The position numbers and the translations under genes were made by a program. From IMG/VR virus record IMGVR_UViG_3300042907_001596, positions 86,441-150,440 of that record: 64,000 nt of DNA; one strand, written 5' to 3'. This document shows, one piece after another, positions 25,917 through 43,055 of the stretch. This stretch comes from a virus. Within the stretch, counting starts at the first letter, position 1; every line of letters begins with the position of its first letter. The notes below the pieces were generated by a model that was not told where the DNA came from, searched no databases, and saw nothing but the letters and a program-made list of their open reading frames with translations.

Positions 25917-27518
25917 ATGTTCTACTCGACTGCACGCTCCATCGACAACCAGGCTACCGCCACGACGTTCCGCGCCGCTTATGTGCGCTACGCCGGTGAG
26001 ACGGAAGCCTGGTTCGACGGCACCCCCCAGTCCATCGACGGCCGGATCGCTCGCGCCAACCGGCTGCTGCACCTGGCGAAGGAGTCCGTCGCCCGCCAAG
26101 GCATGGACGCTGAGAAGCTGGCGTCGATCGGGGAGCTTCAGGCCGACGTGCAAGCACTGACCGCGCTGCGCCACGACCTGCTGACCGCCGGGGCTGACCG
26201 CGAGGACAACTCGCCCATCGCCGGAGTCCACATCGCCTCTGAGTGGAGTGAGAGAGAGCGCATTTACGCTCCCGACGACGACTACGACCCGGCCTTCGAC
26301 ATTGACTACAACGACCCCGACTGGGAAGAGCATTTTGAAAATGCTATGAAGATGCGCGACGAGCTAAAGGCCAAGGGTGTGCCGACGACGCGGCGAGAAG
26401 TCCGCGAAAAGAAGGAGCGAGAGAGGGCGTTGCAGTCCGGTGAGTTGTCGTCCGCTGAGTCGGGACTTACCGTTGCCTACCGCGAGGCTTACTTCCGTCG
26501 CCTGGCCGCTGAGTACACAGAGACTCACCCCCTCAACGGGATGACCGTCGAGGAACTGATTGAACTGCTCAAAGCCAGCGTGGCTGCTCAGGCGAGCAGT
26601 GCTCGCCACGGCAACTCGCGTACCGCCGACTGCGGCGACGACGAAGAGTACAAGGGCGGCGAGCACGACGAAGACGGCGAGCAGCCCAACGACTATCTGT
26701 TCGATGAGCAGGGCCGGTACCGCCGCGAGCGGTTCAAGGGCAAAGAGGCCGGATACTTCGGGGACGGCCAGGACAACGACTGGCGCGACGAAGGCTACTA
26801 CGACGACGAAACCGACGACAAGCGTGACAAGCGCGGCAAGCACCGCATGGACGAGGTCGGCGGATCCGGCCGTCCGGTCACCAACCCCTACACCGGCGAC
26901 GACGGGGGCAGCTTCAGCGGCAACCCGAAGGGGCGCGGGCACTGGGACAAAGCGTCCAGGCGAATGGTCGCTGGATCTGAGTGGCGCAGCATTGAGTGCC
27001 CTGAGTGTGGATCCAGGCCGGGAGACAACTGCACCGAAGGTTCAGGTCATTGGGCTGATGAAGGTCGGTTTGATCGCACACCGCATGAACTGCGCACCGA
27101 CCCCGACGTGATTGCCGAGTACCTGGAGGAGTTCTCGCCGGAGAACGTCCAGCGCGGCGAGGATCAGCGCAACGAAGGGCTGCGCGAACTGGCTGACGCG
27201 ATCGTGCGAGGTGGGCCACGCGAAGCGGGCCTCTCCCCCGATGACCGCCGCTTCGTGGTGCTGGAGTCCGCGAAGTTCTTAGCCGACAACACCGACACCG
27301 ACAATGTCCGCGAGCTAGCCACCCGCGCCCAGCACTTCGCGCAGCAGGTCACCTCCACTTACTCCGACGATCGCTCTCAGGCCGTCACCACCGCGTTCGT
27401 CCGGCGGGTGGCTTCTGCTGCTGCGCAGCGTCGTGACGCTGTCCGGCGCGAGCCGTCCGGCATGAGCAGACAGGCTTCGACCGTCAATGCCTTACCGCCC
27501 GAAGCACTGTTTTTGTAA
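25917..27518 (+). CDS. large modular virion-type protein with phage zinc finger, 533 aa
   Basis: The N-terminal ~110 residues are helical (RAAYVRYAGETEAWFDG, RIARANRLLHLAKESVARQG). A charged middle with an acidic low-complexity region follows (residues ~235-330, rich in Asp, Glu, Gly, Arg). Then comes a zinc-binding motif SIECPECGSRPGDNCTEG...HWADEGRFDRTPHELR, like the CxxCx(4)Gx(2)C...H zinc finger common in actinophage proteins. The C-terminus is helical. An SRTADCGDDEE junction resembles the RTA-type junctions in neighbouring capsid-module proteins. ATG 25917 has TAGGAGG. A virion or capsid-internal role is inferred from location. Confidence 0.6.
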   Translation: MFYSTARSIDNQATATTFRAAYVRYAGETEAWFDGTPQSIDGRIARANRLLHLAKESVARQGMDAEKLASIGELQADVQALTALRHDLLTAGADREDNSPIAGVHIASEWSERERIYAPDDDYDPAFDIDYNDPDWEEHFENAMKMRDELKAKGVPTTRREVREKKERERALQSGELSSAESGLTVAYREAYFRRLAAEYTETHPLNGMTVEELIELLKASVAAQASSARHGNSRTADCGDDEEYKGGEHDEDGEQPNDYLFDEQGRYRRERFKGKEAGYFGDGQDNDWRDEGYYDDETDDKRDKRGKHRMDEVGGSGRPVTNPYTGDDGGSFSGNPKGRGHWDKASRRMVAGSEWRSIECPECGSRPGDNCTEGSGHWADEGRFDRTPHELRTDPDVIAEYLEEFSPENVQRGEDQRNEGLRELADAIVRGGPREAGLSPDDRRFVVLESAKFLADNTDTDNVRELATRAQHFAQQVTSTYSDDRSQAVTTAFVRRVASAAAQRRDAVRREPSGMSRQASTVNALPPEALFL

Positions 27519-27535
27519 CCCAGAAGGGCACCCCG

Positions 27536-27988
27536 ATGATGGGTCAACCGCTGACAATAGATGACGAGTACGTTTCCTTTCGGCCCTTCCTCTATGTGTT
27601 CACCTGGGTTTCCACCCTGCTGCTGCTGTTCAACGGAGACTTTGCCTCCGTCCCCGAAGAGCTACGCGACAACACCGACGGCATCTTCTGGGTGTGGGGC
27701 GGGCTATCGCTGTGGGCACCGCCGGTCGCGCTGCTGGCCTCCGTCCTCATCCGCAAGTCCCCGCAGTGCAAATACCGTGCCTTGTGGCTTCGGCTCAGTG
27801 CCGACTTCTGCCAGTTCATCGCCATCTTGGTGTACCTGATCATGCGGATCTACGTCGGGGATTACCACGTCTACTCCATGGCCTTCCAGTTCGCAGCGCT
27901 GGGGTATATGGCCCACCTCGTGATGGGGGACTCCGTCAAGCTGATGGGTATTGAGGCTCTTGCCGCCAAGCTCCGGCGAGAGGGGTAA
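27536..27988 (+). CDS. four-helix membrane protein, 150 aa
   Basis: Four hydrophobic segments are visible: FLYVFTWVSTLLLLF (~20-34), IFWVWGGLSLWAPPVALLASVLI (~50-72), FCQFIAILVYLIMRIYVG (~92-109) and YSMAFQFAALGYMAHLVMG (~114-132), with a charged C-terminus. It is probably an inner-membrane protein of the infected cell. It precedes another membrane protein by 5 bp. The pair could be holin/antiholin-like or involved in superinfection control; a structural role is unlikely. Start ATG 27536 or 27539. Confidence 0.7.
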   Translation: MMGQPLTIDDEYVSFRPFLYVFTWVSTLLLLFNGDFASVPEELRDNTDGIFWVWGGLSLWAPPVALLASVLIRKSPQCKYRALWLRLSADFCQFIAILVYLIMRIYVGDYHVYSMAFQFAALGYMAHLVMGDSVKLMGIEALAAKLRREG

Positions 27989-27993
27989 GCCCC

Positions 27994-28329
27994 GTGAGTG
28001 CATCCATGAGCGGATTCCTCGCCGCTCTCGCTTACGCTGGCGTCGGGGCCGGTGTCGGAACGATCGGAGCTTCCATCGTGACCGCCCGCTCCGGCCGGGG
28101 TGAATCCCGCGCCCACGCCGCCGAACTCCTCAGTAACGCCGCCGGAGGTCTAGCCGACCGGCTCTCTACCCTGAATGAGAAATTGGACAAAGACAACCGC
28201 GAACTGCGGGATGCCGTCGGTTCGCTCATCGAAGTCATCGACCTGCTGCTGCCGTACATCAAGGACGCCCCGCCGGGAGTGATCTCCAAGGCTGAGAAGA
28301 TGAGCCAGCACGCCAGGCGAGCTATCTAG
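27994..28329 (+). CDS. membrane-anchored coiled-coil protein, 111 aa
   Basis: One N-terminal hydrophobic segment (FLAALAYAGVGAGVGTIGASIV, ~8-29) is followed by a coiled coil (AELLSNAAGGLADRLSTLNEKLDKDNRELRDAVGSLIEVIDLLLPYI) and a short basic tail. This single-span-plus-coil layout recurs in small actinophage membrane proteins near lysis or head genes. GTG 27994 follows the preceding membrane gene by 5 bp, so they probably act together. It could be a spanin-like or accessory holin protein; not proven. Confidence 0.65.
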   Translation: MSASMSGFLAALAYAGVGAGVGTIGASIVTARSGRGESRAHAAELLSNAAGGLADRLSTLNEKLDKDNRELRDAVGSLIEVIDLLLPYIKDAPPGVISKAEKMSQHARRAI

Positions 28330-28338
28330 CCACGCTGA

Positions 28339-28373
28339 CCTGTAACCGACACGCCCCGCGCCGGGAAAGAGGG
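28339..28373 (+). promoter_or_regulatory. class II late promoter-like site
   Basis: CCTGTA (28339-28344), 21 bp, AAAGAGGGAAG from 28366. The gene start is 77 bp from the first box, so the second box is well separated from the ribosome site, which argues that the motif is not simply part of translation initiation. Confidence 0.6.
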
Positions 28374-28415
28374 AAGAAGCAAGTTCCGTCCAAGGCTGGA
28401 AGCAGGGAGCCGAAC

Positions 28416-31400
28416 GTGGCTGACGTTTTTGAGGTGTTGACCGCCTCTGAGTCCGAGCAGAGCATCGCGAAGAAAGCAGCGGCCGACACCCTCGCCGCCG
28501 CGATCTACGACGTACGCGAGCAGTTCGGGGAGCATCTGTTCATCGCCAAGAGCAAAGACGAGTTCCACGACCGTCTGGCCTTGTGCAAAGACGACATGAT
28601 GAAGACGGTCAACGCTCACCTCATGCCGGTGACCGGCGTGATGCGCCGGGTCTGCAAGACGATGGAGCGCGAATGGCGTGAGCGCACCGCCAATCGTCCG
28701 CTGCACGAGATCGCCCGCGACATCAAGACCAACTGGCCGAAGGTCAACTACGCCGCCCAGCCGTACTTAGATGCCCTCCACGAACTGGAGAGCGTCGATG
28801 ATATGTACTACGCGGATCCGGCCAGCCATATCGTCAACTACTTCCTCTCCAACGCCAGATCGTGGCGCGGGCCGGAAGCCAAGCGCATCAAGGACGAACT
28901 GAAGGGCTTGGTCAGCCGCCGCGCCAACCGGCTGGCCTATTCCGACGAAGAGTTGGAAGCCTACAAAGAGACGGTGAGCAGCGACGAGAAGCCGCCGCGC
29001 CCGAAAGCCAAGCCGTTCCCCGACACCGACGGCGAGTGGAAGAAGGCCGACAACACCGGCCCGGTGCAAAGCCTGGAGCAGACCTACTCCCCCTCTGACG
29101 GCCCGCTCGTCCCCGAAGGTGACTTCCACGCCTACCAGAACTCCGTCGACCAGAACGCCGACTCGACGGTGTCGGGAAACTTCACTCCCGGCGAGGACTC
29201 CGGCTCCGACAAGCACGGCTACCGCACCGCCAACGAGGTGATGGGGTACCCGGCCGACGGCGGCATGCCCGACGCAGGCATGGCGACTCCGCCGCCCGCT
29301 CCCGGTATGGATCCGACCACCGGTGCGGGCATGGTTGCCGCCCCGCCAGGAACCGGCGGCAGCGGCCCCGAAATGATGACCGCCGCGATCATCAAGCGGT
29401 ATGCCCAGTGGTGTGTCGCCAACTTGGCGCGGCCGTCGGTGCAGACGCTGGAGTATTACGCCGCCAACCGTCCCGACCTGGACTATTTCGTCCTGACGGC
29501 GGCGTTGCAGAAGCACGCTGAAGTTCCCGGTGGTTCAGCATCGGAGGGGCTTGGTCATATCATTAACCCCTTTGAGCCATCCCCTGAACCCAAGGCTCTT
29601 GATCCGAACCCCTACGCTGGCCTGACCATCCCCGAAAACTTCGATTACAGTGGAGGCAGCGGGGGATCAACCGGCCAGTTTACGGGTGCCTACCTGAAGC
29701 TGTGCCGCCAACAGGGTGTTCAGCCAACGCTACAGGGCTACCAGCGTTTTGCTAACCTCCATACCGCCGCCGGTAAGGGCAAGGACTACCTGCTGCAAGC
29801 CGACGAGGCCATCACCAACCTGCTCAACGAGAAAGCTGAAGAGTTCCAAGAGAGCATTACGCCGCTCCAGCAGGCACTCCAGACCATCCAGTACGCGGAG
29901 CAGGTGCAGCAGGCGCAGAACCCGATGGGCGTCATGCCTCCGGCCGGAACCGTCAACGTCATGCCCCAGACCCAAGGCCCCGCAGGGCCTGCCCCGGCGG
30001 GTGTAGATCCGTCCGGCCAGGTCGACCCGGCGATGCTCGCCCAGCTTATGGGCATGGGTGGCGGGGATCCGTCGCAGATGCAGGATCCCAACGCAGGCAT
30101 CCCTCCGGCAGCCGCCCAGCAGGGTGCGGTGCCGCCGGAGATGCAGATGCAGGCTCGCCGTCGCCGTGCGCAGATCAGCTTGTCTGATGTCCGCATCGAA
30201 GACCGGGGTGCCGGTCTGTGCAGCGGGACAGACCCCGCCGGTCACCGGGTGATGTTCCAGGCTTCGCCGGAAGACATGAAGGATCTCCTGCATGTGATGC
30301 AGGGCGACCTGGCCCAGAACTTCTCTGGGGTGTCGGTGGATGAAGAAGACATTGTCGATATGGGGCCGCAGGAAAAGGTTCCTTCCCACGGCGAGCAGGA
30401 TCCTTACGGTGGCGGTGATGGCGACATCAACCGCAGCTTTACGGGAACCCGCCGCACCGCCAGCAGAACTTCCGACCTCATCGCGGAGTACGAAAGCACT
30501 CCGCACGACGACGTGAAGAGCTTTGAGCTTGAGGAAGCCATCCACCGTCTGGCGGAGCAAGGTGACCCCGAAGCCCTCGCGTTCCTGAACGGTCACGACG
30601 AGCAGGCTCACGACGCGGAAGGGCACGACTACCCTCCGACGGGACACATGGCCCGCCGACGCACCGCCATGCCGATGACCGAAGACGGCTACGACGGAGG
30701 TGACGGCTGGGTTCCCGGCCAGGACTTCGATCCCCATGATCCAGACGAGATGGAAATCATGGAGCACATCTGGGAAGGCGAAAAGCTGAACCGGATGCAG
30801 CAGCTTGAGGAAGAGAACGCGAGACTGCGCAGTCAGCTTGACCCCGGCGGTGAACGTCAGGACTACGAGAACTATCACGATAACCACCGTGAGGGTGCCG
30901 TCTCCGAACTGGGCTACCCCGAACCCGAAGAGGGCTTTGAGGAAAACCACAAGAAGGTACGCAAAGAGAACGACTGGCCAGAACCGGAGTCGCGCTCAAG
31001 CGAAAAGCGTGGTGGTCGGGGAAAAGCACGAGGGGCCGCTAGGCCCCAGAGCCGGGGCCGCACCGCCAGCGGCGACCTGGGCCACTGCCAGATGGGATCG
31101 GGCTGCGGCAACCAGGCCGACCTGACCTTGCCGCTGCGCATCCTGGGGGATGTGCCGTTCTGCCGCCCCTGCGCAGAGCGGTACGTCCGCGTCAAAGACC
31201 GCTACCGCAAAGAAACCCAAGAGAAGAACCGGGCGCAGCAGAAATCCGGCGGCATCTTGGAGGAATGGCAGAAGTGGCAGCAGCGCCGCAGCCAAAGCGG
31301 CAAGCTGGGTATCGGCGGAGACAAAGACATTGAGGACTTCGCCGCCGAGCGCGGCTACGGCAGCCGGGGTGTGGCCACACTCCGCAAGCACCTTTACGGC

Positions 31401-32327
31401 CAGCGCACCGGCTGGTATGAGTCTTACGGTGAGCGCAAAAAGGCTCTCCGCAAGCAAGCCTGGTCAGGCTGGGGGCCGAGCCAGGTCAAGCGCAACCATG
31501 CTGTCGACGGCTGGGACTGGGACAAGCGGCTGTCGGCGTACGTCGCCTCCAGTCCGCCGGAGCACTTCATCTGCAAGTGCGGATCCAAGCTCGCGGTACC
31601 GGGCTACCACAACTGCAAGTGCGGCAAGATCTGGAACTCGTACGTCATCGGCACCGGCGGGGAGAACCGTCAGGCTGCTGTGGAGAAGTTTTTGTGCCGC
31701 GAGATCGCGGTGCGCGACAACGTCATCGTGGCGAACAACAGAACCGCCGGTCGCCCTGTTCGCGACAGCCAGGGCAACCCAATAGAAACGGAATCAGACG
31801 GGTACGTCGAGCGCAAAGTAGTTCGTCAGCCCCAAAGGCCAGAAAAAGACCCAGACCGTCGCCCGTCTGATTTCCAAAGGCAATCTCTCAGTCCTGAAGA
31901 CTTGAGGGATTGGTGGGATTCAGTGAAGCATCTGCACGACAACTCTGAGTTTGATCCAAGACGGTACAACCCAACCACCGGCAAGTATTGGACAGGCAAG
32001 GATGCGCCAGAGATCGGGGCCAGCCGCGAAGCCGCCAAAACCGCCAAAGACGGCGGCTGCACCTGCTGGGAAGGCTACGAGCGTGTCCCCGGCACCGAGC
32101 CGTGCGCGTCTGGCTCCTGCCGGAAGAAGACTTCCGGCCGCGACACGCCAGCAGCGCAGCCGTCCCGGCGGGGCGATTCGTGGAAGTATCGGGAGATGCT
32201 TGCCGCCGATGAAGACGACTCCGACGAGTGGCCATCTGAGCACCACCCCAATGCCGGGAAGTCCACGATGAGCAAGCCCCCCGCCGATTGGCATCACCGC
32301 GATCGTGGAGGGAAGTGGACGGCGTGA
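28416..32327 (+). CDS. very large modular head-region protein, 1303 aa
   Basis: The N-terminal ~190 residues (MADVFEVLTASESEQSIAKKA, HIVNYFLSNARSWRGPEAKRIKDELKG) form a helical domain familiar from large actinophage capsid-region proteins. Later parts include a Pro/Gly/Ala/Met-rich stretch, short helical modules around LKLCRQQGVQPTLQGYQRFA, acidic segments, and two zinc sites (CQMGSGCGN...CRPCAERY near 890-925; CKCGSKLAVPGYHNCKCGK near 1050-1070). Basic junctions such as GTRRTASR, MARRRTAMP and SRGRTASGD punctuate it, suggesting proteolytic processing. Segments near residues 369-430 and 1120-1190 are AT-richer. A packaged internal protein or polyprotein is inferred; no enzyme identified. Confidence 0.6.
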   Translation: MADVFEVLTASESEQSIAKKAAADTLAAAIYDVREQFGEHLFIAKSKDEFHDRLALCKDDMMKTVNAHLMPVTGVMRRVCKTMEREWRERTANRPLHEIARDIKTNWPKVNYAAQPYLDALHELESVDDMYYADPASHIVNYFLSNARSWRGPEAKRIKDELKGLVSRRANRLAYSDEELEAYKETVSSDEKPPRPKAKPFPDTDGEWKKADNTGPVQSLEQTYSPSDGPLVPEGDFHAYQNSVDQNADSTVSGNFTPGEDSGSDKHGYRTANEVMGYPADGGMPDAGMATPPPAPGMDPTTGAGMVAAPPGTGGSGPEMMTAAIIKRYAQWCVANLARPSVQTLEYYAANRPDLDYFVLTAALQKHAEVPGGSASEGLGHIINPFEPSPEPKALDPNPYAGLTIPENFDYSGGSGGSTGQFTGAYLKLCRQQGVQPTLQGYQRFANLHTAAGKGKDYLLQADEAITNLLNEKAEEFQESITPLQQALQTIQYAEQVQQAQNPMGVMPPAGTVNVMPQTQGPAGPAPAGVDPSGQVDPAMLAQLMGMGGGDPSQMQDPNAGIPPAAAQQGAVPPEMQMQARRRRAQISLSDVRIEDRGAGLCSGTDPAGHRVMFQASPEDMKDLLHVMQGDLAQNFSGVSVDEEDIVDMGPQEKVPSHGEQDPYGGGDGDINRSFTGTRRTASRTSDLIAEYESTPHDDVKSFELEEAIHRLAEQGDPEALAFLNGHDEQAHDAEGHDYPPTGHMARRRTAMPMTEDGYDGGDGWVPGQDFDPHDPDEMEIMEHIWEGEKLNRMQQLEEENARLRSQLDPGGERQDYENYHDNHREGAVSELGYPEPEEGFEENHKKVRKENDWPEPESRSSEKRGGRGKARGAARPQSRGRTASGDLGHCQMGSGCGNQADLTLPLRILGDVPFCRPCAERYVRVKDRYRKETQEKNRAQQKSGGILEEWQKWQQRRSQSGKLGIGGDKDIEDFAAERGYGSRGVATLRKHLYGQRTGWYESYGERKKALRKQAWSGWGPSQVKRNHAVDGWDWDKRLSAYVASSPPEHFICKCGSKLAVPGYHNCKCGKIWNSYVIGTGGENRQAAVEKFLCREIAVRDNVIVANNRTAGRPVRDSQGNPIETESDGYVERKVVRQPQRPEKDPDRRPSDFQRQSLSPEDLRDWWDSVKHLHDNSEFDPRRYNPTTGKYWTGKDAPEIGASREAAKTAKDGGCTCWEGYERVPGTEPCASGSCRKKTSGRDTPAAQPSRRGDSWKYREMLAADEDDSDEWPSEHHPNAGKSTMSKPPADWHHRDRGGKWTA

Positions 32328-32674
32328 CCGTGTGCTTCACCTGTAAGCATCTGCGGGAGATTGTCCACACCGACGAACTGGAGCGGGGCTTCTGCGCCCA
32401 GTGCTACCGGCCGTCGTGGGATCTCCTCTTCGCCAACAGCTTCATGGCGCTGACCGTCCCCTTCGCGGTGGGCGATCGGGTGCAGTGCCGCACCGCCGGA
32501 GTGATCTACGACGGCATCGGCGTGGTGGAGGAAGTCTCCACCGACTTGAAGGACGGAGGAACCTGGGTGTATCCGGCGTTCCGCGTCCGCTTCGATGAGA
32601 AGGCATACTCATCGGTGCCCGACGTGCAGTTGTACACCGAAGCCTGCCTGACGAAGGTGGGCAGCGATGAGTGA
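32324..32674 (+). CDS. zinc-ribbon plus small beta-barrel protein, 116 aa
   Basis: GTG 32324 overlaps the previous stop (GTGA). Residues ~4-27 hold a zinc ribbon, CFTCKHLREIVHTDELERGFCAQC. The rest has an SH3/KOW-like pattern (FAVGDRVQCRTAGVIYDGIGVVEEVSTD, TWVYPAFRVRFDEKAYSSVPD). It may be a small nucleic-acid- or protein-binding adaptor for the portal, which starts 8 bp before its end. Exact role unknown. Confidence 0.6.
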   Translation: MTVCFTCKHLREIVHTDELERGFCAQCYRPSWDLLFANSFMALTVPFAVGDRVQCRTAGVIYDGIGVVEEVSTDLKDGGTWVYPAFRVRFDEKAYSSVPDVQLYTEACLTKVGSDE

Positions 32675-35063
32675 CTTCTCCATCTCCGACCGGCGCGGGC
32701 GCACCGCGTCCGGCCTCTACGTCGGCAACGCCAACACCGAGATGCACCGGCTGCGCCAGGCCGGGTACACCCTGCCCAACTCCCCGGTGCAGGCCCGCAT
32801 CGAATCCCGCCGGGTAGCCGACACCGCCACCGCCGGATCGCTGGCCGACTCCACCAACAAAGCTATCGCCGCGCAGATGCGCCGCAGCCGGATGGGCAGC
32901 ATGCGGGCGTCCACCGGCGGATCTACGATGATGCGTACCGGATCCAATACCCAGATGGCGATGCCGAAGGTGCGCCAGCCGATGGGGTCGCTGGCCGACA
33001 AAGGCATCCCCTTCAACGTCCAAGACCCCAAAGAGCTTATTGAGCTTCGCCGGTGGTGCCGGTTGTTCTATTCGACCCATGACTTGGTGCCGTTGTTGAT
33101 CGACATCTACGCGAAGTTCCCGGTCGTCGGCTTGGAGTTCCAAAGCAAAGACCCGAAGATCCAAGAGTTCTACGAGCAGATGTTTATGCAGGATCTGAAC
33201 TACTCCGAGTTTCTGCCCGAAGGGCTGGGCCGGGAATACTTCACCGTCGGTGAGGTCACCTCGCTGGCGCACTTCAACGAGTCGCTGGGCATCTGGTCGT
33301 CCGAAGAGATCCTGAACCCCGACATGGTGCGCGTCAGCAAAAGCCTCTTCGTCGGCCAGGAGCGGGTGCAGCTTCTCGTCAAAGACTTGGTGGACTCGCT
33401 GCGCACCGGCCCGCAAGGGTCAACCTCCGGCGAAGAGTCGCCCAGCGAGAAGCTGGAGCGCACCTGGGAGTACCAGCAACTGGTCAAGCACTACCCCGAA
33501 ATCGTCAAGGCGGCAGCCCAAGACGACGGCCTCGACATCTCCGACGCGCTCTGCTCACGCCTAGTCAACAAGTCCTCCTGGTGGGATCTGCGGGGCACCC
33601 CGCACCTGCTGCGCTCCTTCCGCACCCTGATGATGGAAGAGTCGCTGCACGCCGCCCAGGACGCCGTGGCCGACCGGCTGTACGCCCCGCTCATCCTCGC
33701 CACGATGGGTATTGAAAATATGGGCGACGGCGAGCCGTGGATCCCCGACCAAGGCGAATTGGACGATCTGCGCGACGACATGCAGAACGCTTTGTCGGCC
33801 GACTTCAAGCTGATGGTGCATAACTTCGGCGTGAACATCCAGTCGGTGTTCGGCCGCGAGCAGGTGCCGCGCTTCGACACCGACTACGACCGCATCGACG
33901 CCAAGCTCCTCCAGGCGTGGGGCATCGGCCAAGCTCTCATCGCCGGTGGCTCCGGTGCCGGTGGTGCCTACGCTTCGTCCGCGCTGAACCGCGAGGTGTG
34001 CGAGCAGTTGATGCTCACCTTCCAGAACAAGGTTCACCGCCACATTATGAAGCGGGCCGAAGTCATTGCCGAAGCCCAGGAGCATTACGACTTTGAGCTA
34101 AAAGGCGGCATCCGCCGCCCGATCTACCGGGAGATCGTGCAGTACAACGAAGAGACGGGCGAAGAAGAGATCGTCCGCGTCCCCAAGCTGCTGCTGCCCG
34201 AAGTCAAGTTCGCTACCCTCAACCTTCGCGACGAAGCCCAAGAAAGGGCGTTCATCGCCCAACTCAAGCAGATGGGTGTGCCCGTCTCCGACGGCAGCTT
34301 GGCGGTCAACATCCCGATTGAGTTCGACCAGGAGCTAGAGAAGCAGGCCGAAGAGACGGTCGCTAAAGGGCTGGCGAAAGCCCAGGCGATGGACAAGCTC
34401 CAGAAGATGTGCGACGCCCAAGGCATCCCGTACCCCGACGATCTGGTGGCTGCACTATCAGCCACACTGCAACTGCGTCAGGGTTTGGCCCAGACCGAAA
34501 TGGTCGAGGGTCAGGCGGAGATGCAGGAGCAGCAGATGAAGGCGATGTCTCCCGCCGGACAGATGGGCCTTATCCCCGGCGTCGCTGCGCCTCCGCCGCC
34601 GCCGGAAGGTCAGCAGAAAGCTGCCTCGACCGGCCCGCACGGATCCCCGCCGTTTGCGTCCGGCCCCGGCGGTGTGCAGGAAGTAGAAGAGGAAGGGACT
34701 CCGCCGGAGCTTCCCCGCAACCGGCAGCGTCCGGCGGAGTCCGACGAGCAGCGCGGCTCCATGCCGAAGAAGTCACGGTTTGAGCAGGGGCCAAGCTCCT
34801 ACGGCAAAGCGATGCGGGCCAACACCAACCGGGTGGAGCAAGCAGTGCGCCGCCGGGAGGCGGTCGCTCGCGGAGTGTCCGTCAGCGATCTGGTCAACGA
34901 CCCCGAGTCGTACTTCTTGACTAATATGGGTGGCTACGAAGCGCAGATCCGCGCCGACTGGCCGGAGATTCAAGCCGGGGGTGCCCCCGACAGTCGCAAG
35001 CTGTTAGAGGAGTTGGTGGAGCAATATGAAGAAGTCACCGGTATCACGCCCCGATGGGACTAA
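32667..35063 (+). CDS. portal protein, 798 aa
   Basis: The central region (KELIELRRWCRLFYSTHDLVPLLIDIYAKFPVVGLEF, then FLPEGLGREYFTVGEVTSLAHFNESLGIWSSEEILNPDMVRV) has the hallmarks of large-phage portals: early helical stem, wing domain and a long helical crown (ALSADFKLMVHNFG...). It forms the dodecameric DNA gate at one head vertex. The N-terminus begins with an RGRTASGLYVGN junction like those in neighbouring large proteins, so the first residues may be cleaved. The C-terminal ~200 residues are Pro/Gln/Met-rich and low complexity. It overlaps the previous gene by 8 bp. Confidence 0.8.
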   Translation: MSDFSISDRRGRTASGLYVGNANTEMHRLRQAGYTLPNSPVQARIESRRVADTATAGSLADSTNKAIAAQMRRSRMGSMRASTGGSTMMRTGSNTQMAMPKVRQPMGSLADKGIPFNVQDPKELIELRRWCRLFYSTHDLVPLLIDIYAKFPVVGLEFQSKDPKIQEFYEQMFMQDLNYSEFLPEGLGREYFTVGEVTSLAHFNESLGIWSSEEILNPDMVRVSKSLFVGQERVQLLVKDLVDSLRTGPQGSTSGEESPSEKLERTWEYQQLVKHYPEIVKAAAQDDGLDISDALCSRLVNKSSWWDLRGTPHLLRSFRTLMMEESLHAAQDAVADRLYAPLILATMGIENMGDGEPWIPDQGELDDLRDDMQNALSADFKLMVHNFGVNIQSVFGREQVPRFDTDYDRIDAKLLQAWGIGQALIAGGSGAGGAYASSALNREVCEQLMLTFQNKVHRHIMKRAEVIAEAQEHYDFELKGGIRRPIYREIVQYNEETGEEEIVRVPKLLLPEVKFATLNLRDEAQERAFIAQLKQMGVPVSDGSLAVNIPIEFDQELEKQAEETVAKGLAKAQAMDKLQKMCDAQGIPYPDDLVAALSATLQLRQGLAQTEMVEGQAEMQEQQMKAMSPAGQMGLIPGVAAPPPPPEGQQKAASTGPHGSPPFASGPGGVQEVEEEGTPPELPRNRQRPAESDEQRGSMPKKSRFEQGPSSYGKAMRANTNRVEQAVRRREAVARGVSVSDLVNDPESYFLTNMGGYEAQIRADWPEIQAGGAPDSRKLLEELVEQYEEVTGITPRWD

Positions 35064-35666: not shown

Positions 35667-35667
35667 A

Positions 35668-35704: not shown

Positions 35705-35715
35705 AGGTAGCGACG

Positions 35716-38700
35716 ATGGTGAAAATCGGCAGCGCGGTACAGACTGCCCACGGTTTGGGCACGGTTACCGACACCGAAACGGTGCGCGGCCGAACCCAGT
35801 ACAAAGTGGCCGGAGATGGCTTCGCTGTCTGGCTGGACGACGTGAAGGTTGCCGCTTCCAGCCCAAGCTCAGAGGATTGGGTTGACGAGCGTCGGAGATG
35901 GGAAAACTCTCACCCCGAATGGAGTCCGTTTAAAGAAGATGAGGATTCTCAGCGTCGGCTGAATACAAAAGAGTCCTCGCTAGGTGACGTAGACGAGTCC
36001 AACTCCACCACGCTGCCGTACGACTACGAGCCGCAGCACCCGGTGGAGATGTACAACCAAGAGTCCACCATCATCCCCGCCGAGCACGACGATGTCGACG
36101 CAGAAGAGCGCACCCACCCCACCAACTCCGTGACCGGCGAGAGCGAAGAGGGTGGCCCCTACCCCGGCCCCGCCCCGCACCTGTTCGCCAGGGTCATGGA
36201 CTACCCCGCCGACTACGACCTGGGCGATGAGCCGTCCGAAGAGGAAGTCGCCGCCGACGAGCGCAGGAACCGCGAAGAGGAAGAAGCTCTTTACGAGCAG
36301 TACCTCCTTGAGCATCGCCCTCACTTCCACGGCGACGAAGAGTACGAAGGACGGATGTCCTTTGAGGGCGCAGCCGAAGGCGCAGCCTCTCAAGACTGCG
36401 ACTATTGCGGTGAGTCGGGACACGACTGGCAGGAGCATCCCGAAGCGTGGGCCGACGTTGCAGTATGGAATTACGAGAAGAAACAGCATGACTTCCCGTT
36501 CGGGGATCACCACGAAGGCGAGCCTGCTGAGGACTTTGACGGCTACGAGCATTTCGCTGCACGCACCGCCGCCGGAGCGTGGGGCGACCTGGCCGACGAA
36601 CCCGAAGCTGGCGGAGGACACCACGCCAAAGGCAGCGCAGGGCACTATCAGCAGTACGCGCTGCGCAACGGATTAAACCCCGGCAGCAGCCTCGCCGCCG
36701 ATCAGTATTCCCGCGAACACAACATCCCGCTGGAACGGGCTGAAGGCTTCGCTATGAAGCAGAGCCACCGCCCCGCCGGTCTGAGTGACAAGTACATCGA
36801 CATCCAGGCTGCCGCCGACGACATTCACGACCCGATCGTCCAGTTCCGCCGCGACCCCATCGCCTTCCTTCAGCGCAAAGCCTACGAGGCGGAGTGCGAA
36901 GAAGGGCTGGATCCGCGTGTCGGGCAGTACATGGATCTGGTCAACGCCGACACCAGCATCCGCACTGCCGCCTGGAACGATGTCCGCACCAAAGCTCTGC
37001 GGCTGCGCCGCGAAGGCAAGGTGTATGTCAAGTCCTCCACGCCGGAAGCCATCTACGCCACCGTCGAGGGCGACAACAACGTGTACGACTCCATCATCGT
37101 CCAAGGCAACGCCTTGAACATCGGTGGCCAGTCGGTCACCGAATGGCACTGTGGCTGCCCATGGGGCAAGTGGGCGTTCAAGCGCAAGATCTCTTACGTC
37201 GGCCGGTTCTGCTCCCACGCTTACGCCACCTACCTGGAGATGCAGTCCCGCCACACCACCGGCCAGGGTGGGGTCAAGCAGACCCCGAACCGCAACCGCA
37301 ACAAGCCGTGGCTGAGTGTGCCGCAAAACAAGAAGGCTGCCGCCGACGACATGAAGACCCGGTCGGAGCGCGACTACGACGTGGACGGCTACGGCTTCGA
37401 TGACGACGGCGGATCCGGTGGCCCGAAGACCCTGAAGAGCCAGCCCGAAAGCATGGAGCCGGACTTCTACGAAGTACCCGTCGGCACCCAACAGGGGTAT
37501 ACGTTCGACAATGGCAAGGGCACGGTCACGAACTTAGGCGACGACCGCAAGACCACCGGGCCGGATCAGATCATGGCCAAAGTCGACAAGAAGTGGGCCG
37601 ACGACCACGCCAAGCTGGACGACGAAGAGCACGAGCCGATCGTTCACTTCAGCATGCGCAAGCAGGCGCTGACCTACACCGCCGATGAGAACCTGCTGGA
37701 GAAGCTGCGCGACCTCAGCCTGGAAGCCCCGTCCGACAGCAACGGCCACAAGCGGGAGCGCAACCGCGAGGTGTCGGAGATCGTGGACGAACTCCACGAC
37801 CGGGGCTATGACGCCAGCCAGTTCGTCGCATCGCTGCGTACCGCCGAGGACGGCGAGGGTGGTATTTTTGACTGGCTAGGGCAGGCAACCCGTAGCCCTT
37901 TTGAGCGCAACCTGGATGGTGGCAGCGACAGCTTTTCGGACGCATTTGATCTTCGTAATCCGTTCTACAATGACGACGCACCTTCACAGACAAACCCGCA
38001 AGGATCTGGTGCTTACGTCAAGAGGGACGAGCCATCGTCGCCCACCGGAAGCTCCGACCCCGATGCTTTCGCGGATCTGAGCAATATCGGAGAAGATCCC
38101 GCTGACCCCGCTCCCGCCCCGGCAGCAGCCGCCGCCGCATCCGGTACCGGAGTCAGCGAAGTCAGCAGTGACGCCGGAGGCGGCGGCGGTGGTGGTGCAG
38201 GCGGCGGCGGTGGTGCAGGTGGCTATGTGTCCCCTCCCGGCGGCACTCGCGGCCCCGTCACCGACGGTGGCGTTCCCGGCGCGGAGAACGGCGACAACTC
38301 GCTGATCAACACCGAGAGCTACACCACCCAGGCGGGGGACACCCTGACCGACATCGCGCAGCGGACGTACGGCGACATGAACCGTTACGAAGAGATCGCT
38401 ACGAACAACAACATCACCAACACCGACCAGCTTGATGTTGGGACGACCCTGAACCTTCCCGGCGCGGGAGGGGCTTCCCCCGCCCCGGCGGCAGCGGACG
38501 CTCCGGCTTTGGCCGCAGAAGCCCCAACCCCGGCTCAGGCCAACGCTGGCCCCCCGCCGGACAACGCCGCATCGGCAACCTTCGCGCCGGGTGCCCCGGT
38601 GCCGCCGGTCGGCACTGTGGCCCGCCGCCGGTACAGTGGCCCCGGCCACGACCACGGCAGCGAGGCTACCGACGACGACGACGAAACCAAAAAGACTGCC

Positions 38701-39528
38701 CCGCCAGCATCCACCACCACGACACCGTCGTCGTCAACGCCCCCGGCGTCCACGCCAGTAGACAGCCGCTCCCCGGCGGCGGGCGCATCCGGCGGGATGA
38801 CCGCGCAAGGCATCCCCATCCCGACGGAAACGCAAGACCAGATAACGCAAGACAACTTCGGCTCCGCCAAGTCCCAGCCGAAAACACAAACCTTAGAGGA
38901 TCGGCTACCCCAGCCGGGGCAGTCCACCTCAACCGGCGACGGCGGCATGGGTGACTTCGGATCGGTGATGGGCGAAATCGGCCCCGCGCTGTCCGGCCTG
39001 ACGACGGGCCTTGGCCCACTGGTGGGCGAGATCGGATCCGCTGTGGCTCCGGCCATCAGTGGCTTGGCCAGCGGTTTGGGCGGCGCACTCAGCGGGCTGT
39101 TCAGCATGGCGTCTGCACCGAATGAAGGATCTGACCACGACGCGGGCCTGCCCGCTGAGGACTTCGGCACCTCCGAAGAGTGGATCAACGCCAACGAGAG
39201 CGGCTGCCGGGAAGACGTGACCGACGGCGACGGCGACATCACCAGTTACACCCCGCCGCGCCAGCAGCCCAAGCAGGCTAGCTACGACGACAACGACATC
39301 GTCCGGCAGTTCCAGGCCAACATCGGTAATACCGCGCTGGCATCGGTCGGCGGCGGCGGCGGATACAGCGACGACGCGATCTCGCAGGCTGCCCAAGGCT
39401 TTCTGCGGACAGCGGGTCGGGTGTACTCCCTAGCCGAGCAGCAGGAACTGATTGACGAGTCCCACCCGCAGGGTGCCCGCAACCTGCCTGGCCTCGACCT
39501 TCGGGGCACCCACTACCTGGAGGGCTGA
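35716..39528 (+). CDS. very large modular head-region protein with SWIM zinc finger and LysM domain, 1270 aa
   Basis: Visible parts in order: a small beta domain (~1-50), an acidic region (~60-290), helical modules, a SWIM zinc finger near 474-510 (WHCGCPWGKW...GRFCSHAYATYLE), more acidic/helical segments, a Gly/Ala/Pro linker, a LysM domain near 868-916 (YTTQAGDTLTDIAQRTYGD), a Ser/Thr/Pro-rich linker, and a C-terminal part ending LPGLDLRGTHYLEG. LysM binds N-acetylglucosamine polymers such as peptidoglycan. Junctions FAARTAAGA, SIRTAAWND, ASLRTAEDG, TVARRRYSG and FLRTAGRVY suggest processing. Located between portal and prohead protease, so a virion-internal polyprotein is likely; inference. 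Confidence 0.65.
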   Translation: MVKIGSAVQTAHGLGTVTDTETVRGRTQYKVAGDGFAVWLDDVKVAASSPSSEDWVDERRRWENSHPEWSPFKEDEDSQRRLNTKESSLGDVDESNSTTLPYDYEPQHPVEMYNQESTIIPAEHDDVDAEERTHPTNSVTGESEEGGPYPGPAPHLFARVMDYPADYDLGDEPSEEEVAADERRNREEEEALYEQYLLEHRPHFHGDEEYEGRMSFEGAAEGAASQDCDYCGESGHDWQEHPEAWADVAVWNYEKKQHDFPFGDHHEGEPAEDFDGYEHFAARTAAGAWGDLADEPEAGGGHHAKGSAGHYQQYALRNGLNPGSSLAADQYSREHNIPLERAEGFAMKQSHRPAGLSDKYIDIQAAADDIHDPIVQFRRDPIAFLQRKAYEAECEEGLDPRVGQYMDLVNADTSIRTAAWNDVRTKALRLRREGKVYVKSSTPEAIYATVEGDNNVYDSIIVQGNALNIGGQSVTEWHCGCPWGKWAFKRKISYVGRFCSHAYATYLEMQSRHTTGQGGVKQTPNRNRNKPWLSVPQNKKAAADDMKTRSERDYDVDGYGFDDDGGSGGPKTLKSQPESMEPDFYEVPVGTQQGYTFDNGKGTVTNLGDDRKTTGPDQIMAKVDKKWADDHAKLDDEEHEPIVHFSMRKQALTYTADENLLEKLRDLSLEAPSDSNGHKRERNREVSEIVDELHDRGYDASQFVASLRTAEDGEGGIFDWLGQATRSPFERNLDGGSDSFSDAFDLRNPFYNDDAPSQTNPQGSGAYVKRDEPSSPTGSSDPDAFADLSNIGEDPADPAPAPAAAAAASGTGVSEVSSDAGGGGGGGAGGGGGAGGYVSPPGGTRGPVTDGGVPGAENGDNSLINTESYTTQAGDTLTDIAQRTYGDMNRYEEIATNNNITNTDQLDVGTTLNLPGAGGASPAPAAADAPALAAEAPTPAQANAGPPPDNAASATFAPGAPVPPVGTVARRRYSGPGHDHGSEATDDDDETKKTAPPASTTTTPSSSTPPASTPVDSRSPAAGASGGMTAQGIPIPTETQDQITQDNFGSAKSQPKTQTLEDRLPQPGQSTSTGDGGMGDFGSVMGEIGPALSGLTTGLGPLVGEIGSAVAPAISGLASGLGGALSGLFSMASAPNEGSDHDAGLPAEDFGTSEEWINANESGCREDVTDGDGDITSYTPPRQQPKQASYDDNDIVRQFQANIGNTALASVGGGGGYSDDAISQAAQGFLRTAGRVYSLAEQQELIDESHPQGARNLPGLDLRGTHYLEG

Positions 39529-39530
39529 AA

Positions 39531-39567: not shown

Positions 39568-39581
39568 AAGGGAGCATCGTT

Positions 39582-42500
39582 GTGATAACGCCGCCCCGCC
39601 GCTTCTCTGCGGCGCAATCCCGCAGCCTTTCCGGCGACGGTGTCCGGCAGCTACTCGCTTCGTATCGGGGTGGTGCCGCCGACAACGCTGCCGTCGTTCC
39701 TGGCTTCACGATTGAGCCGGGGATGATCTACACCCAGGTGCGGGCCATCAGTGCGCGGATCAACCAGAACTACGATGCGTGGCCCAGCGGCGAACTGAAG
39801 AAGAGCTACAAGACCTTTTTGGGCAAGCCGGTCTTCGTCAATCACGCCAACTTCGACCCAGAGAAGGCACGCGGCCGGGTTGTCGCCGCCCGCTATGTCG
39901 AAAGCGGCAACGACAAATACGTTGAGGTCATCCAAGAGATCGACGCCCAACGCTTCCCGAAGCTCGCCAAAGAGATCCACGAAGGTGGACTGGATTCGGT
40001 GTCGATGGGTGTGGAGGCCGGGTTCACGAAATGTTCAATCTGTGACAACCGCGCCACCGACATGACCGATATGTGTGACCACATCAAGTTCCACAAAGGC
40101 GAGTTTATGCGCCACGCCAAGACCGGCGAAGACACCATGGTCTACGAGAACTGCTACAAGCTGGGATTTTTTGAGTTGAGCTACGTCTTCGACCCGGCCG
40201 ATGAGACGGCCGTCGTCAGCCGCGTCGTGGTAGCCAGCCGCCCACAGGCGTCGCGCCGCCAGGAGCGCGACCGCAAGATCCGCGAATACCGCGACTTCAT
40301 CAAGCAAAACCCCGGCAGCCTTAAGGCAGCCCGCCTCATCGTGGCCACCGAGATCGCCAGGACGGACTGGTCAGATCTGGGTCGGCGGGCATACGGGGAG
40401 GGCGCACCGGCGAAAGCTGCTAGCCATCCCGAAGTTGCCGCCGCCTTGAAGCACTTAGATCCGCGCAGCGACACCGCCCGGTGGATCAGCAACGAATACC
40501 AGCAGGGCTACGACACCGCCAGGAAGACCAGCCGCCGTCGGCTGGCGGCGGGCGAAGACGAACTCAACCGGGGCATGATCTCTCCCGCGACCTCACCGGC
40601 ACCGCCTCCCGCCATGAAGCCGGATGAGAACACCTCCACCATGAGCGAACTGGCCAACACCCCGCTGGGTGATCTGCCCTATCGGCCGACCTCGTTCCCC
40701 ACCGCGATCCCCGGCGCACCGTCGGGCGGAAGTTCATCCGGCGGCGGTGTCAGCGGCGCGGGCTACGTCTCCCCCGGCGGCGGGACGGCCGACGCGGCAG
40801 GTCTGATGGACAACAACCGGGGCCTGCACACCCTGCTGAAGCAGACCTTCCCCGACCTAGAAATCGGCGGCTACCGCCCACCGGGGGATGGCTTCGATGA
40901 ACACGCCAAAGGCGCGTTGGACATTATGACCACGGACAACGACATAGCGGCACAGATCCGCCAGATCGGCTTCGACAACGGTGTGCCCTACGCCTTGTGG
41001 CAGCAGCAGCAGTTCAACGCACCGTGGTACAACGGCGGAGGAGTATCACAAATGGAAGATCGGTTCAGTCCGACCCAAAACCATTTCGATCACGTCCACC
41101 TCGCGCCGCCGGATATGTCTTTGATGCCGCGCTCCGCGTCTCGCCGTCGCGCCTGGGGAGAAACCGAAGCCCCCGAAGACATCGACACGCTGCGCGACCA
41201 AAGCGAAGACGACGGGCAGGACGAGTTCCACCACTATGTGGACTCCCCCGAAGAACTTCAGACACCCGACTTCGACCAGGCTAAGCGGCTGGATCGGGCA
41301 CAAGAACAGCAGGGCCTCGACGCCGACCGGCGGGTAGAGGACATCGAAGAGGTCGGAACCCCCGGCCAACAAGGAAGAGGAAGAGCCGTGGCCGGACGAC
41401 GCCGTTACGCCGAAGACATGCCGATGATGGCCCCCGAAGAAGAAGGCATGATGCCTCCTGAAGAAGGCATGGCCCCCGAAGAGAGCATGATGCCGTCCGA
41501 AGGGATGCCGCCCGCTGAAGCCATGCCTCCCGGCGCGATGGGCAGCCTCAGCCCCGCCGACGAGTTGGCTCTCCTCAACCAGGCGGAGCAAGACCTGGAG
41601 TACGCCGAATCCGAGTTAGTCGAAGACTATGTCGGAGTGCCCAGCGCGGGGCCGCAAATGCCCCCGCAAGAAGAAGGTGGGCAAATGCCTCCCCAGTTAG
41701 CTTCCCGTCGCCCTGTGAGAAGCACCGCTTCACGACGGAATGTACGAGAGACACAGAAAGGACGACCAATGGGAATCAACCTGTCCGAGCGCGGGAGGGT
41801 CGCTTCTCGTGGTCGACGCCTTCATGCCGACGAAAGCGGCCTCACTGACGGCGGGCCTTACGGCCGTAACGACCTGGGTGAGTCCGAAGAAGTCCACATC
41901 TCCGATCAGTTCGGTGGAGACGGTGTGCCGTCGGCGGAAGCCGTAGCCAACCCGCACGCCGGTGAGACGATCTCCAACACGGAGAACACCCTCGTCGCCC
42001 GCGTCCAGCATGGCACCGCGCAGTTGCGCCGGGATGCCGCCGCGCTGGCCAGTCTGCGTCAGAAGAAGTCCGCCGCCGCCGCTACCCCCGAAGCAATCAG
42101 TCGGCGGTACGTCGCGCTGTGCCGTCAGGCCAACGTCCGTCCGACCCAGGACGGTTTCCGCCGCTTCTACGCGGAGTGCTGCGACGACAACATCATCGAA
42201 CCCACGACGGTCAACCCCGAACTGTCGGGCACCGACGACCAGACCATCAAGGGTGACGACTTCGACAACATCGCCCTCGACAACGTCGCCACCCAGCCGA
42301 AGGACGCGAGCATCCACGCTTTCGCCGCGTTCGATGACTGGCTGGCCCGCTCGACCGGCCGGACTGCTCGCCAGCACGGCAATGCGAACTTCATCCGGCG
42401 CGAAGCGGCACGGTACATCCGCGCCACCGGGCTGCCGCTGAACAACTTGTTCCCCACCCTGGAAAAAGTTCTGGTGGAAGCCAGAAAGGCTGAGGACATC

Positions 42501-43055
42501 ACCAACCGGAAGGCAGCCATGAGGCGAGTCGCTGACACGAAGCTGGAAGTTGCAGCACCAGGCGACCGCATCGACGTGGAGCGTCCGGTCAAGAACGTCA
42601 CCGACGCCGAAGCCCAAGCGTCTCAGTACGACCTGAGCGACTACGGCTCCAACGCCGGTGACAACCTTGCCGACCCCGACCTCAGTACGGATTCACAGAT
42701 CTGGGCACCGGGCGAAGGCAGCAAGACATCCAACCGGATGGCGGATGCGGTAGCGGCGGTTCGTTGTGCCGAAGCCTACATTCGCGCTGGCATGGCGGAC
42801 GCGGACGACAAGTGGAAACTCATCGCCCGATTCCAGACCATGCGCCACGCGACGGTCGTTGACCGTACGCGACTGCTGGAGGCCAAGAACGAGTTGGACT
42901 CACAGCGCACATCACGACGTTCCGCCGGTGTTTCTCGCGGTGCGACCAGCAGAAGCATCCCTCCAGGCTTGGGCAGCGGCCAACGCACCGCCCAGACCCA
43001 GCGGGTTGCCGACAACAGCGATCCCCGTAACGACTCACTTCTGTTCTTCAAGTAA
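39582..43055 (+). CDS. prohead protease fused to a long multidomain tail, 1157 aa
   Basis: Residues ~45-215 are a capsid maturation protease of the His-Ser herpesvirus-assemblin type: FLGKPVFVNHANFDPEKARGRVVAARY (catalytic His) and GGLDSVSMGVEAG (catalytic Ser). A zinc-like insert follows (CSICDNRATDMTDMCDH). After linkers, residues ~405-510 carry a peptidase-like cell-wall domain (GGYRPPGDGFDEHAKGALDIM...FDHVHLAPP). Then come acidic and Met-rich scaffold-like stretches with RRR-containing junctions, a helical module (ALCRQANVRPTQDGFRRFYAE, as in the 28416 protein), and a C-terminal helical part. It likely matures the head and may be self-cleaved into pieces. GTG start. Confidence 0.75.
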   Translation: MITPPRRFSAAQSRSLSGDGVRQLLASYRGGAADNAAVVPGFTIEPGMIYTQVRAISARINQNYDAWPSGELKKSYKTFLGKPVFVNHANFDPEKARGRVVAARYVESGNDKYVEVIQEIDAQRFPKLAKEIHEGGLDSVSMGVEAGFTKCSICDNRATDMTDMCDHIKFHKGEFMRHAKTGEDTMVYENCYKLGFFELSYVFDPADETAVVSRVVVASRPQASRRQERDRKIREYRDFIKQNPGSLKAARLIVATEIARTDWSDLGRRAYGEGAPAKAASHPEVAAALKHLDPRSDTARWISNEYQQGYDTARKTSRRRLAAGEDELNRGMISPATSPAPPPAMKPDENTSTMSELANTPLGDLPYRPTSFPTAIPGAPSGGSSSGGGVSGAGYVSPGGGTADAAGLMDNNRGLHTLLKQTFPDLEIGGYRPPGDGFDEHAKGALDIMTTDNDIAAQIRQIGFDNGVPYALWQQQQFNAPWYNGGGVSQMEDRFSPTQNHFDHVHLAPPDMSLMPRSASRRRAWGETEAPEDIDTLRDQSEDDGQDEFHHYVDSPEELQTPDFDQAKRLDRAQEQQGLDADRRVEDIEEVGTPGQQGRGRAVAGRRRYAEDMPMMAPEEEGMMPPEEGMAPEESMMPSEGMPPAEAMPPGAMGSLSPADELALLNQAEQDLEYAESELVEDYVGVPSAGPQMPPQEEGGQMPPQLASRRPVRSTASRRNVRETQKGRPMGINLSERGRVASRGRRLHADESGLTDGGPYGRNDLGESEEVHISDQFGGDGVPSAEAVANPHAGETISNTENTLVARVQHGTAQLRRDAAALASLRQKKSAAAATPEAISRRYVALCRQANVRPTQDGFRRFYAECCDDNIIEPTTVNPELSGTDDQTIKGDDFDNIALDNVATQPKDASIHAFAAFDDWLARSTGRTARQHGNANFIRREAARYIRATGLPLNNLFPTLEKVLVEARKAEDITNRKAAMRRVADTKLEVAAPGDRIDVERPVKNVTDAEAQASQYDLSDYGSNAGDNLADPDLSTDSQIWAPGEGSKTSNRMADAVAAVRCAEAYIRAGMADADDKWKLIARFQTMRHATVVDRTRLLEAKNELDSQRTSRRSAGVSRGATSRSIPPGLGSGQRTAQTQRVADNSDPRNDSLLFFK

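What the first reader, a model, noticed from the sequence alone, without database searches (positions are those of the whole stretch)
25917..43055. Recurring RTA / RRR-x-A junctions in all giant head-module proteins: predicted maturation cleavage sites
Short basic motifs followed by a small residue and then acidic or new-domain sequence recur: NSRTADC (25917 protein); GTRRTASR, MARRRTAMP, SRGRTASGD (28416); RGRTASGLY (portal N-terminus); FAARTAAG, SIRTAAW, ASLRTAED, TVARRRYSG, FLRTAGRV (35716); SASRRRAWG, VAGRRRYAED, TSRRRLAAG, ASRGRRLHAD (39582). They sit at domain borders. I infer that the prohead protease cuts these polyproteins into many internal proteins.
Basis: partly seen in the sequence, partly recalled or inferred. 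Interest (0 to 1): 0.75.

Follow-up and report, generated by a model that had tools for sequence, protein, structure and literature searches.

The report
Basic-x-alanine cut sites in phage heads
In a large family of bacterial viruses related to mycobacteriophage Bxz1 and Bacillus phage G, the long proteins built inside the virus head are dotted with a short basic-any-alanine signal that is very probably where the virus's own head protease cuts them, a different cutting rule from the ones known in phages T4 and SPN3US.

Summary
The window is part of a 150-kb Bxz1/cluster-C-like myovirus. In its three giant head proteins [RK]xA occurs 69 times against 42 expected (0 of 2000 shuffles); the rest of its proteome shows none of this (0.99x). 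Only the +2 spacing is specific. The excess recurs in six relatives, Eggerthella phage LE2-3 and Bacillus phage G. It lies in tails and linkers and is absent from folded cores. The same blind test, run on T4 core proteins, returns T4's known cleavage motif (I.E and L.E, ranks 1 and 2). A gp21-like protease domain (H88, S141) begins the 39582 protein. The related phage G capsid protein is cut after an Ala, by published N-terminal sequencing.

The best reading is [RK]-x-A = P3-P2-P1 of the prohead protease: a new specificity of a known kind. Not supported: acidic residues after the site. Partly supported: domain borders. Individually non-significant: the 25917 protein and the portal. Untested: that fragments persist as internal proteins instead of leaving as scaffold debris.

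The parts
28416..32327 (+). gpA, 1303-aa head-module protein (phrog_2922 family); RTA at aa 90, 270, 680, 749, 882, 1109 and a dksA/traR-like zinc finger just after RTA-884
   Evidence: PF01258 E 0.0024, below Pfam's cut-off
30453..30461 (+). predicted cut site RTA|S (aa 680-682)
   Evidence: motif plus context score
30660..30668 (+). predicted cut site RTA|M (aa 749-751)
31059..31067 (+). predicted cut site RTA|S (aa 882-884)
31740..31748 (+). predicted cut site RTA|G (aa 1109-1111)
32667..35063 (+). portal protein (phrog_2833); [RK]xA depleted in the core and enriched in the N-tail across 14 portals; RTA|S at aa 12-14
32700..32708 (+). candidate portal N-terminal cut site RTA|S (also RRGRTASG in Phrappuccino)
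   Evidence: single site, not significant alone
35716..39528 (+). LysM/SWIM-like giant protein, 1270 aa (phrog_2940; LysM at aa 869-915)
36961..36969 (+). cut site RTA|AW before the SWIM-like Cys/His domain; R-x-A retained in 85% of 20 homologues with P2 = T/E/Q
37837..37845 (+). cut site SLRTA|E; retained in 50% of homologues, P2 = T/Q/M/L/H
39406..39414 (+). RTA|GR near the C-terminus, retained in 95% of homologues (nearly fixed, so it could also be a structural element)
39582..43055 (+). 1157-aa protein: prohead protease domain fused to a long modular, largely disordered tail
39717..40217 (+). prohead protease domain (aa 46-212), invariant H88 and S141 aligned with T4 gp21 H85 and S140; 39% identical to phage G gp19
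   Evidence: (phrog_18299, E 4.6e-21)
41145..41153 (+). cut site RRA|WGETEAP; [RK]xA retained in 61% of homologues, P2 very variable
41403..41411 (+). predicted cut site RYA|E (poorly conserved, good context score)
42525..42533 (+). cut site RVA|DTKLEV at the end of a predicted helical module; retained in 81%, P2 = R/T/Q/K/Y/F
42735..42743 (+). cut site RMA|DAVAAV before the last module; retained in 89%, P2 = T/K/S/R/L/F
42918..42926 (+). cut site RSA|GVSRG at the end of the last module; retained in 81%, P2 = V/T/L/K
42984..42992 (+). cut site RTA|Q in the C-terminal tail; retained in 73%, P2 = T/V/S/P/I/Q
43002..43010 (+). cut site RVA|DNSDP in the C-terminal tail; retained in 70%, P2 variable
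43093..43620 (+). capsid cement protein (PF23968), start at ATG 43093 after an AGGAGG-like site
43636..44637 (+). major capsid protein (phrog_2522), homologue of phage G gp27
43810..43818 (+). predicted capsid protein maturation site RLG|QSMIGPI (aa 59-61), aligned with the sequenced N-terminus of phage G gp27
   Evidence: PMC5646251 Table 1

Best explanation
[R/K]-x-A is the P3-P2-P1 recognition sequence of the prohead protease carried at the N-terminus of the 39582 protein. During head maturation the protease cuts after the alanine. It cuts at many places in the disordered tails and linkers of gpA, the LysM protein and its own long C-terminal tail, and probably in the portal and capsid-protein N-tails. 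Shown here: the motif, its spacing, its restriction to the head block and to linkers, its recurrence across the family, and the protease domain. Inferred: that the bond is cut, that the cut is after Ala, and what happens to the fragments.
For: (1) With the window excluded, unbiased tripeptide ranking in six relatives puts KTA 34/5.8, RTA 36/8.1 and RQA 28/7.1 near the top, and gapped RR.A 41/9.3 and RK.A 29/6.4. (2) At +2 after R/K, Ala is the most enriched of 20 residues (1.75x, next 1.37x); two before Ala, R (1.75x) and K (1.74x) lead (next 1.21x). (3) The excess is significant in each phage taken alone (z 3.1 to 6.0), including phage G, where K.A is the top pair of 2400 tested, and absent in the rest of the own proteome (0.99x), phage G's other genes (0.94x) and the Eggerthella tail region (0.88x). 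(4) It is in tails, not cores: portal core 0.73x, N-tail 1.59x; protease core 1.09x, C-tail 1.97x; SWIM core 0.81x, LysM-protein N-tail 1.96x. (5) Positive control: the same blind test gives I.E and L.E as the two top pairs in T4 core proteins, and A.E at gap 2 in SPN3US propeptides (1.84x) but not in the mature parts (0.95x); these are the known motifs L/I-X-E and A-X-E (PMC9026906, PMC10052503). (6) Conserved sites keep R/K and A while P2 changes, for example RVA|DTKLEV and RMA|DAVAAV. (7) Protease domain: phrog_18299 E 4.6e-21, phage G gp19 39% identity, H88/S141 in register with T4 gp21. (8) Phage G gp27 shortens from 282 to 255 aa by N-terminal sequencing (PMC5646251), i.e. cut after A27; the aligned window sequence is RLG|Q and the Eggerthella one KVA|Q.
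Against: The one sequenced site in the family (phage G, VALA|Q) has Ala at P1 but Ala, not R/K, at P3, although an R-V-A lies two residues upstream; the window's aligned site ends in Gly, and [RK]xG is depleted in head proteins (0.62x). P2 is not significantly more variable than the middle of other conserved triplets (P = 0.28). No border enrichment in the protease protein. Only about 27 of 69 [RK]xA in the window are in excess, so many individual sites are chance. No proteomic data for this phage or for cluster C were found.
Confidence: 0.83

Rival explanations
1. The cuts are real but the giant proteins are scaffold/core and propeptides: maturation shreds them and most pieces leave the head, as with T4 gp22, gp67, gp68 and SPN3US propeptides. 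They are not a store of internal proteins. (This is a rival only for the fate of the fragments, not for the cutting.)
For: Long disordered, fast-evolving tails (pLDDT below 50 for 615 of 1157 residues) and dense redundant sites; SPN3US propeptides carry several sites each (PMC10052503); T4 core proteins are cut into many pieces that mostly exit (PMC9026906).
Against: Conserved modules lie between sites (LysM, SWIM-like finger, dksA/traR-like finger, segment shared with a tape-measure family), which pure scaffold would not need.
Confidence: 0.4
2. Chance or composition: Arg/Ala-rich low-complexity linkers give many RxA by base composition.
For: RTA is 2.1x over expectation even outside the head block; the tail protein at 49383 has nine RTA in a VTATRTA-type repeat; +3 and +4 spacings are also raised in the protease tail (1.47x, 1.50x).
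Against: Spacing- and residue-specific peak, composition-preserving shuffles 0 of 2000, recurrence in phage G (different host group), no excess in folded cores, T4 positive control.
Confidence: 0.05
3. [RK]-x-A is a short binding motif (capsid, scaffold or DNA contact) that is not cut.
For: The RTAGR element near the LysM-protein C-terminus is nearly fixed (95% of homologues), more like a docking peptide; internal proteins often bind DNA (general knowledge).
Against: A P3-x-P1 pattern is exactly what the T4 and SPN3US proteases read; the motif is also enriched in portal N-tails; P2 is free at several conserved sites.
Confidence: 0.08
4. The sites are cut, but by a host protease, in the cell or after ejection.
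For: Nothing here excludes it; the bond was not tested biochemically.
Against: The motif is shared by phages of Mycobacterium, Gordonia, Rhodococcus, Eggerthella and Bacillus, and tracks the phage's own protease.
Confidence: 0.04

Closest known systems
T4 gp21 prohead protease system (core proteins gp22, gp67, gp68, internal proteins, Alt)
   Same: Protease domain aligned in register with T4 H85 and S140; short P3-x-P1 motif; many cuts in core proteins; the same blind test finds both motifs.
   Different: T4 reads L/I-X-E (P1 Glu) and its protease is free-standing; here P3 is basic, P1 is Ala, and the protease is fused to a long self-substrate tail.
phiKZ / SPN3US (gp175 / gp245) head maturation
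   Same: Large myovirus heads, multi-site propeptides, portal and capsid protein cut, A-X-E read at P3-P2-P1 (PMC10052503).
   Different: P1 Glu instead of Ala; sequence relatedness of the proteases was not tested here.
Bacillus phage G gp27/gp19
   Same: Homologous capsid protein and protease; capsid protein cut after Ala (PMC5646251); K-x-A the top pair in its head block.
   Different: Protease is a separate 300-aa gene; the sequenced capsid site has Ala at P3.
Cluster C / Bixzunavirus and Myrnavirus phages, Rhodococcus phage E3
   Same: Syntenic head module with the same giant proteins and the same motif; E3 gp77 is already annotated prohead protease.
   Different: No cleavage motif was found described for them in the library searched.

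Membership tests
T4 gp21-type (His/Ser) prohead proteases | catalytic His and Ser in conserved order and register | tested here: met
   H88 and S141 invariant in 11 homologues incl. phage G gp19, aligned with T4 H85/S140 by hhalign, E 0.0014 but probability only 17.6; that these are the T4 catalytic residues is from memory
T4 gp21-type (His/Ser) prohead proteases | sequence family match to head maturation proteases | tested here: met
   phrog_18299 head maturation protease, E 4.6e-21; no Pfam family reaches its cut-off; HK97 gp4 not matched
T4 gp21-type (His/Ser) prohead proteases | fold of the herpes/T4 protease | tested here: inconclusive
   AlphaFold model of the whole protein, Foldseek has no hit at E <= 0.001; KSHV protease only at E 0.66
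T4 gp21-type (His/Ser) prohead proteases | cleavage after Glu at [L/I/A]-X-E (T4 and SPN3US specificity) | tested here: not met
   enriched pair in the head block is [RK].A; hence called a variant specificity, not the T4 specificity
Proteolytic head maturation (processed core and shell proteins) | major capsid protein loses an N-terminal arm | tested here: inconclusive
   homology only: phage G gp27 282 to 255 aa (PMC5646251) aligned to RLG|Q
Proteolytic head maturation (processed core and shell proteins) | fragments or neo-N-termini in virions | not testable with these tools
   needs mass spectrometry
Bxz1/cluster C-like myoviruses | syntenic order portal, LysM protein, protease fusion, cement, capsid protein | tested here: met
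   genes between portal and LysM protein (thymidylate synthase, RNA ligase in most relatives) were not checked in the window

The most novel reading that the evidence does not exclude
The three giant proteins are true polyproteins: cassettes (zinc fingers, LysM, a tape-measure-shared segment) separated by [RK]-x-A cut sites, released inside the capsid and ejected with the DNA, with cassettes swapped between phages of this lineage.
Probability: 0.3. Interest if true: 0.75.

Novelty: new variant of a known kind. Interest (0 to 1): 0.58.

Why it matters
It proposes the cutting rule of the head protease for more than 200 sequenced phages (cluster C mycobacteriophages and relatives, phage G), for which I found no described cleavage motif, and a concrete list of bonds to test in virions that already exist in laboratories. 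A P1 Ala/P3 basic rule beside the P1 Glu rules of T4 and SPN3US would show that the P3-x-P1 grammar is conserved while the residues change. The residue-pair spacing test recovers the T4 motif blind, so it may be useful for predicting prohead protease motifs elsewhere.

Tried and rejected
Acidic residues after the site: none. Motif at borders of alignable blocks: supported for the LysM protein (1.63x against 1.01x for a control spacing), not for the protease protein (1.32x against 1.42x). Motif at AlphaFold order/disorder borders: no clear excess. P2 more variable than the middle of other conserved triplets: no (P = 0.28). Retention of exact [RK]xA pairs in the alignment is not clearly above other spacings ([RK]xA 0.376; Ala four before R/K 0.399 in the protease protein). 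Foldseek of both models: nothing significant for the protease; LysM-like matches only, none at E <= 0.001. Copied DNA repeat: rejected, codons vary. RTA in the 1964-aa tail protein as further cut sites: rejected, it belongs to a VTATRTA repeat. HK97 gp4 as closest protease: no match. Distant IMG/VR relatives L014/L015, large ORFs pooled, show only weak peaks (1.14x, 1.33x). Literature: no cluster C virion N-terminal data found.

Full report
What the window is. It is bases 86441-150440 of a 150,440-bp virus record. Portal, capsid protein and giant head genes are syntenic with mycobacteriophages Tonenili, I3, Cane17, Alice, Myrna and Phrappuccino, Gordonia phage CherryTomatoes and Rhodococcus phages Finch and E3. 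Portal identity to named phages is about 56-63% and capsid protein identity about 76-82%. More distant relatives are Eggerthella phage LE2-3 and Bacillus phage G. So this is a Bxz1/cluster-C-like myovirus not closely matched by a named phage; records very near the window may be hidden by the tool.

The observation. The quoted peptides exist. RTA alone is significant in gpA and the LysM protein, not in the portal or the 25917 protein. RTA is also mildly raised in the rest of the proteome (2.1x), partly because a 1964-aa tail protein holds nine copies inside a VTATRTA-type repeat. I therefore asked without a preset motif which patterns are over-represented. In six relatives with the window left out, KTA, RTA and RQA and the gapped forms RR.A and RK.A stand out. 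Pooled over seven phages, R.A and K.A rank 2nd and 5th of 2400 residue pairs; C.C (zinc fingers) and glycine runs take the other top places. At +2 after R/K, Ala is the most enriched residue, and two residues before Ala, R and K lead equally. The motif is [RK]-x-A.

Specificity. The excess is at +2 above all; in the protease tail the +3 and +4 spacings are also moderately raised. It holds in each phage separately: window 69/41.9, Tonenili 66/41.6, Phrappuccino 63/33.7, CherryTomatoes 60/38.8, Myrna 74/41.4, Finch 64/34.4, E3 28/16.8, phage G 61/30.9, Eggerthella 98/63.2. It is missing from the own remaining proteome (0.99x), phage G's other genes (0.94x) and the Eggerthella tail region (0.88x). 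Within head proteins it avoids folded parts: portal core 0.73x, protease core 1.09x and SWIM-like core 0.81x, against 1.59x, 1.97x and 1.96x in the portal N-tail, protease-protein C-tail and LysM-protein N-tail. These sets contain homologues, so pooled P values overstate the independence; the phage-by-phage repetition is the safer argument.

Positive control. The same blind ranking on T4 gp67, gp68, gp21 and gp22 returns I.E and L.E as the two top pairs of 2400, which is the known gp21 motif L/I-X-E (PMC9026906). For SPN3US, A-to-E at gap 2 is 1.84x in propeptides and 0.95x in mature parts, agreeing with A-X-E at P3-P2-P1 (PMC10052503); there the blind ranking itself did not put A.E on top. 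For gp47 and gp75 the propeptide was approximated as the first 200 residues.

The protease. Residues 67-211 of the 39582 protein match phrog_18299, head maturation protease (E 4.6e-21), and the domain is 39% identical to phage G gp19 over 152 columns. H88 and S141 are invariant and fall in register with T4 gp21 H85 and S140 (weak: probability 17.6). HK97 gp4 is not matched. Foldseek of the AlphaFold model is not informative. In phage G the protease is a separate gene; here it is fused to about 940 residues of modular, mostly disordered sequence that is rich in sites.

Capsid protein. Phage G gp27 is reported as 282 residues, 255 after maturation, by N-terminal sequencing (PMC5646251, Table 1). 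Calculated from the gene, residues 28-282 weigh 28.17 kDa against 28.2 in the table, so the cut is VALA|QAMANPI. The aligned window bond is RLG|QSMIGPI and the Eggerthella one KVA|QGVVGPI. This supports a small P1 residue and, in most members, a basic P3; phage G itself has Ala at P3, with R-V-A two residues upstream. The capsid-protein arm carries further [RK]xA such as GRFA|K and KLA|S, but the capsid core shows a similar +2 ratio (1.85x arm, 1.70x core), so the capsid protein gives no tail-specific signal.

Individual sites. Best conserved, with P2 free to change: RVA|DTKLEV (81%), RMA|DAVAAV (89%), RSA|GVSRG (81%), RTA|Q (73%) and RVA|DNSDP (70%) in the protease protein, and R[TEQ]A|AW before the SWIM-like finger (85%) in the LysM protein (these figures allow a few residues of alignment slack); [RK]xA|[YWF]GETEAP is kept in 61%. 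A context score trained on relatives separates head from non-head [RK]xA in the genome (P 1.5e-6), but about 9% of non-head sites still pass the cut that keeps 35% of head sites, so single predictions are uncertain.

What is not shown. No bond has been seen cut in this phage or in cluster C. Border placement is only partly supported. Whether pieces stay as internal proteins or leave as debris cannot be told from sequence; modules between sites (LysM, SWIM-like finger, dksA/traR-like finger, a segment shared with a tape-measure family) favour some retention.

Verdict. Real feature, very probably prohead-protease sites, with a specificity I found in no paper of the library searched. A new variant of a known kind.

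Noticed in passing
L023:9231-12344 (Eggerthella phage LE2-3): The prohead protease gene is interrupted by an intein-like insert (Hint and LAGLIDADG matches, protein residues about 139-526) directly after the catalytic-serine motif TVSMG; the record names the gene tRNA synthetase.
   Followed up: partly
window 49383-55277: 1964-aa minor-tail-like protein with nine RTA inside a recurring VTATRTA element, probably a beta-repeat; a trap for RTA counting.
   Followed up: partly
window 39582-43055, aa 391-508: Segment matching a tape-measure family (phrog_6090) with an H..G..D...DHVH pattern, absent from Phrappuccino, CherryTomatoes, Finch and E3 proteins; it may be an inserted peptidoglycan-enzyme-like cassette flanked by [RK]xA sites.
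   Followed up: partly
window 42766-43620: The mechanical ORF is too long: the cement protein starts at ATG 43093 after an AGGAGG-like site.
   Followed up: yes
L020:13971-17666 (Cane17) and Jaygup/Pio portals: Some cluster C portal genes are a few hundred aa longer and align in three pieces, suggesting inteins in the portal.
   Followed up: no
L018:6105-10084 (Finch): The position of gpA is taken by two adjacent genes in Finch, one gene in the other actinophages.
   Followed up: no
L019:10472-13631 (E3 gp70): The E3 counterpart of gpA is annotated as a pseudogene-like misc_feature although called a structural protein; a frameshift or sequencing error is possible.
   Followed up: no
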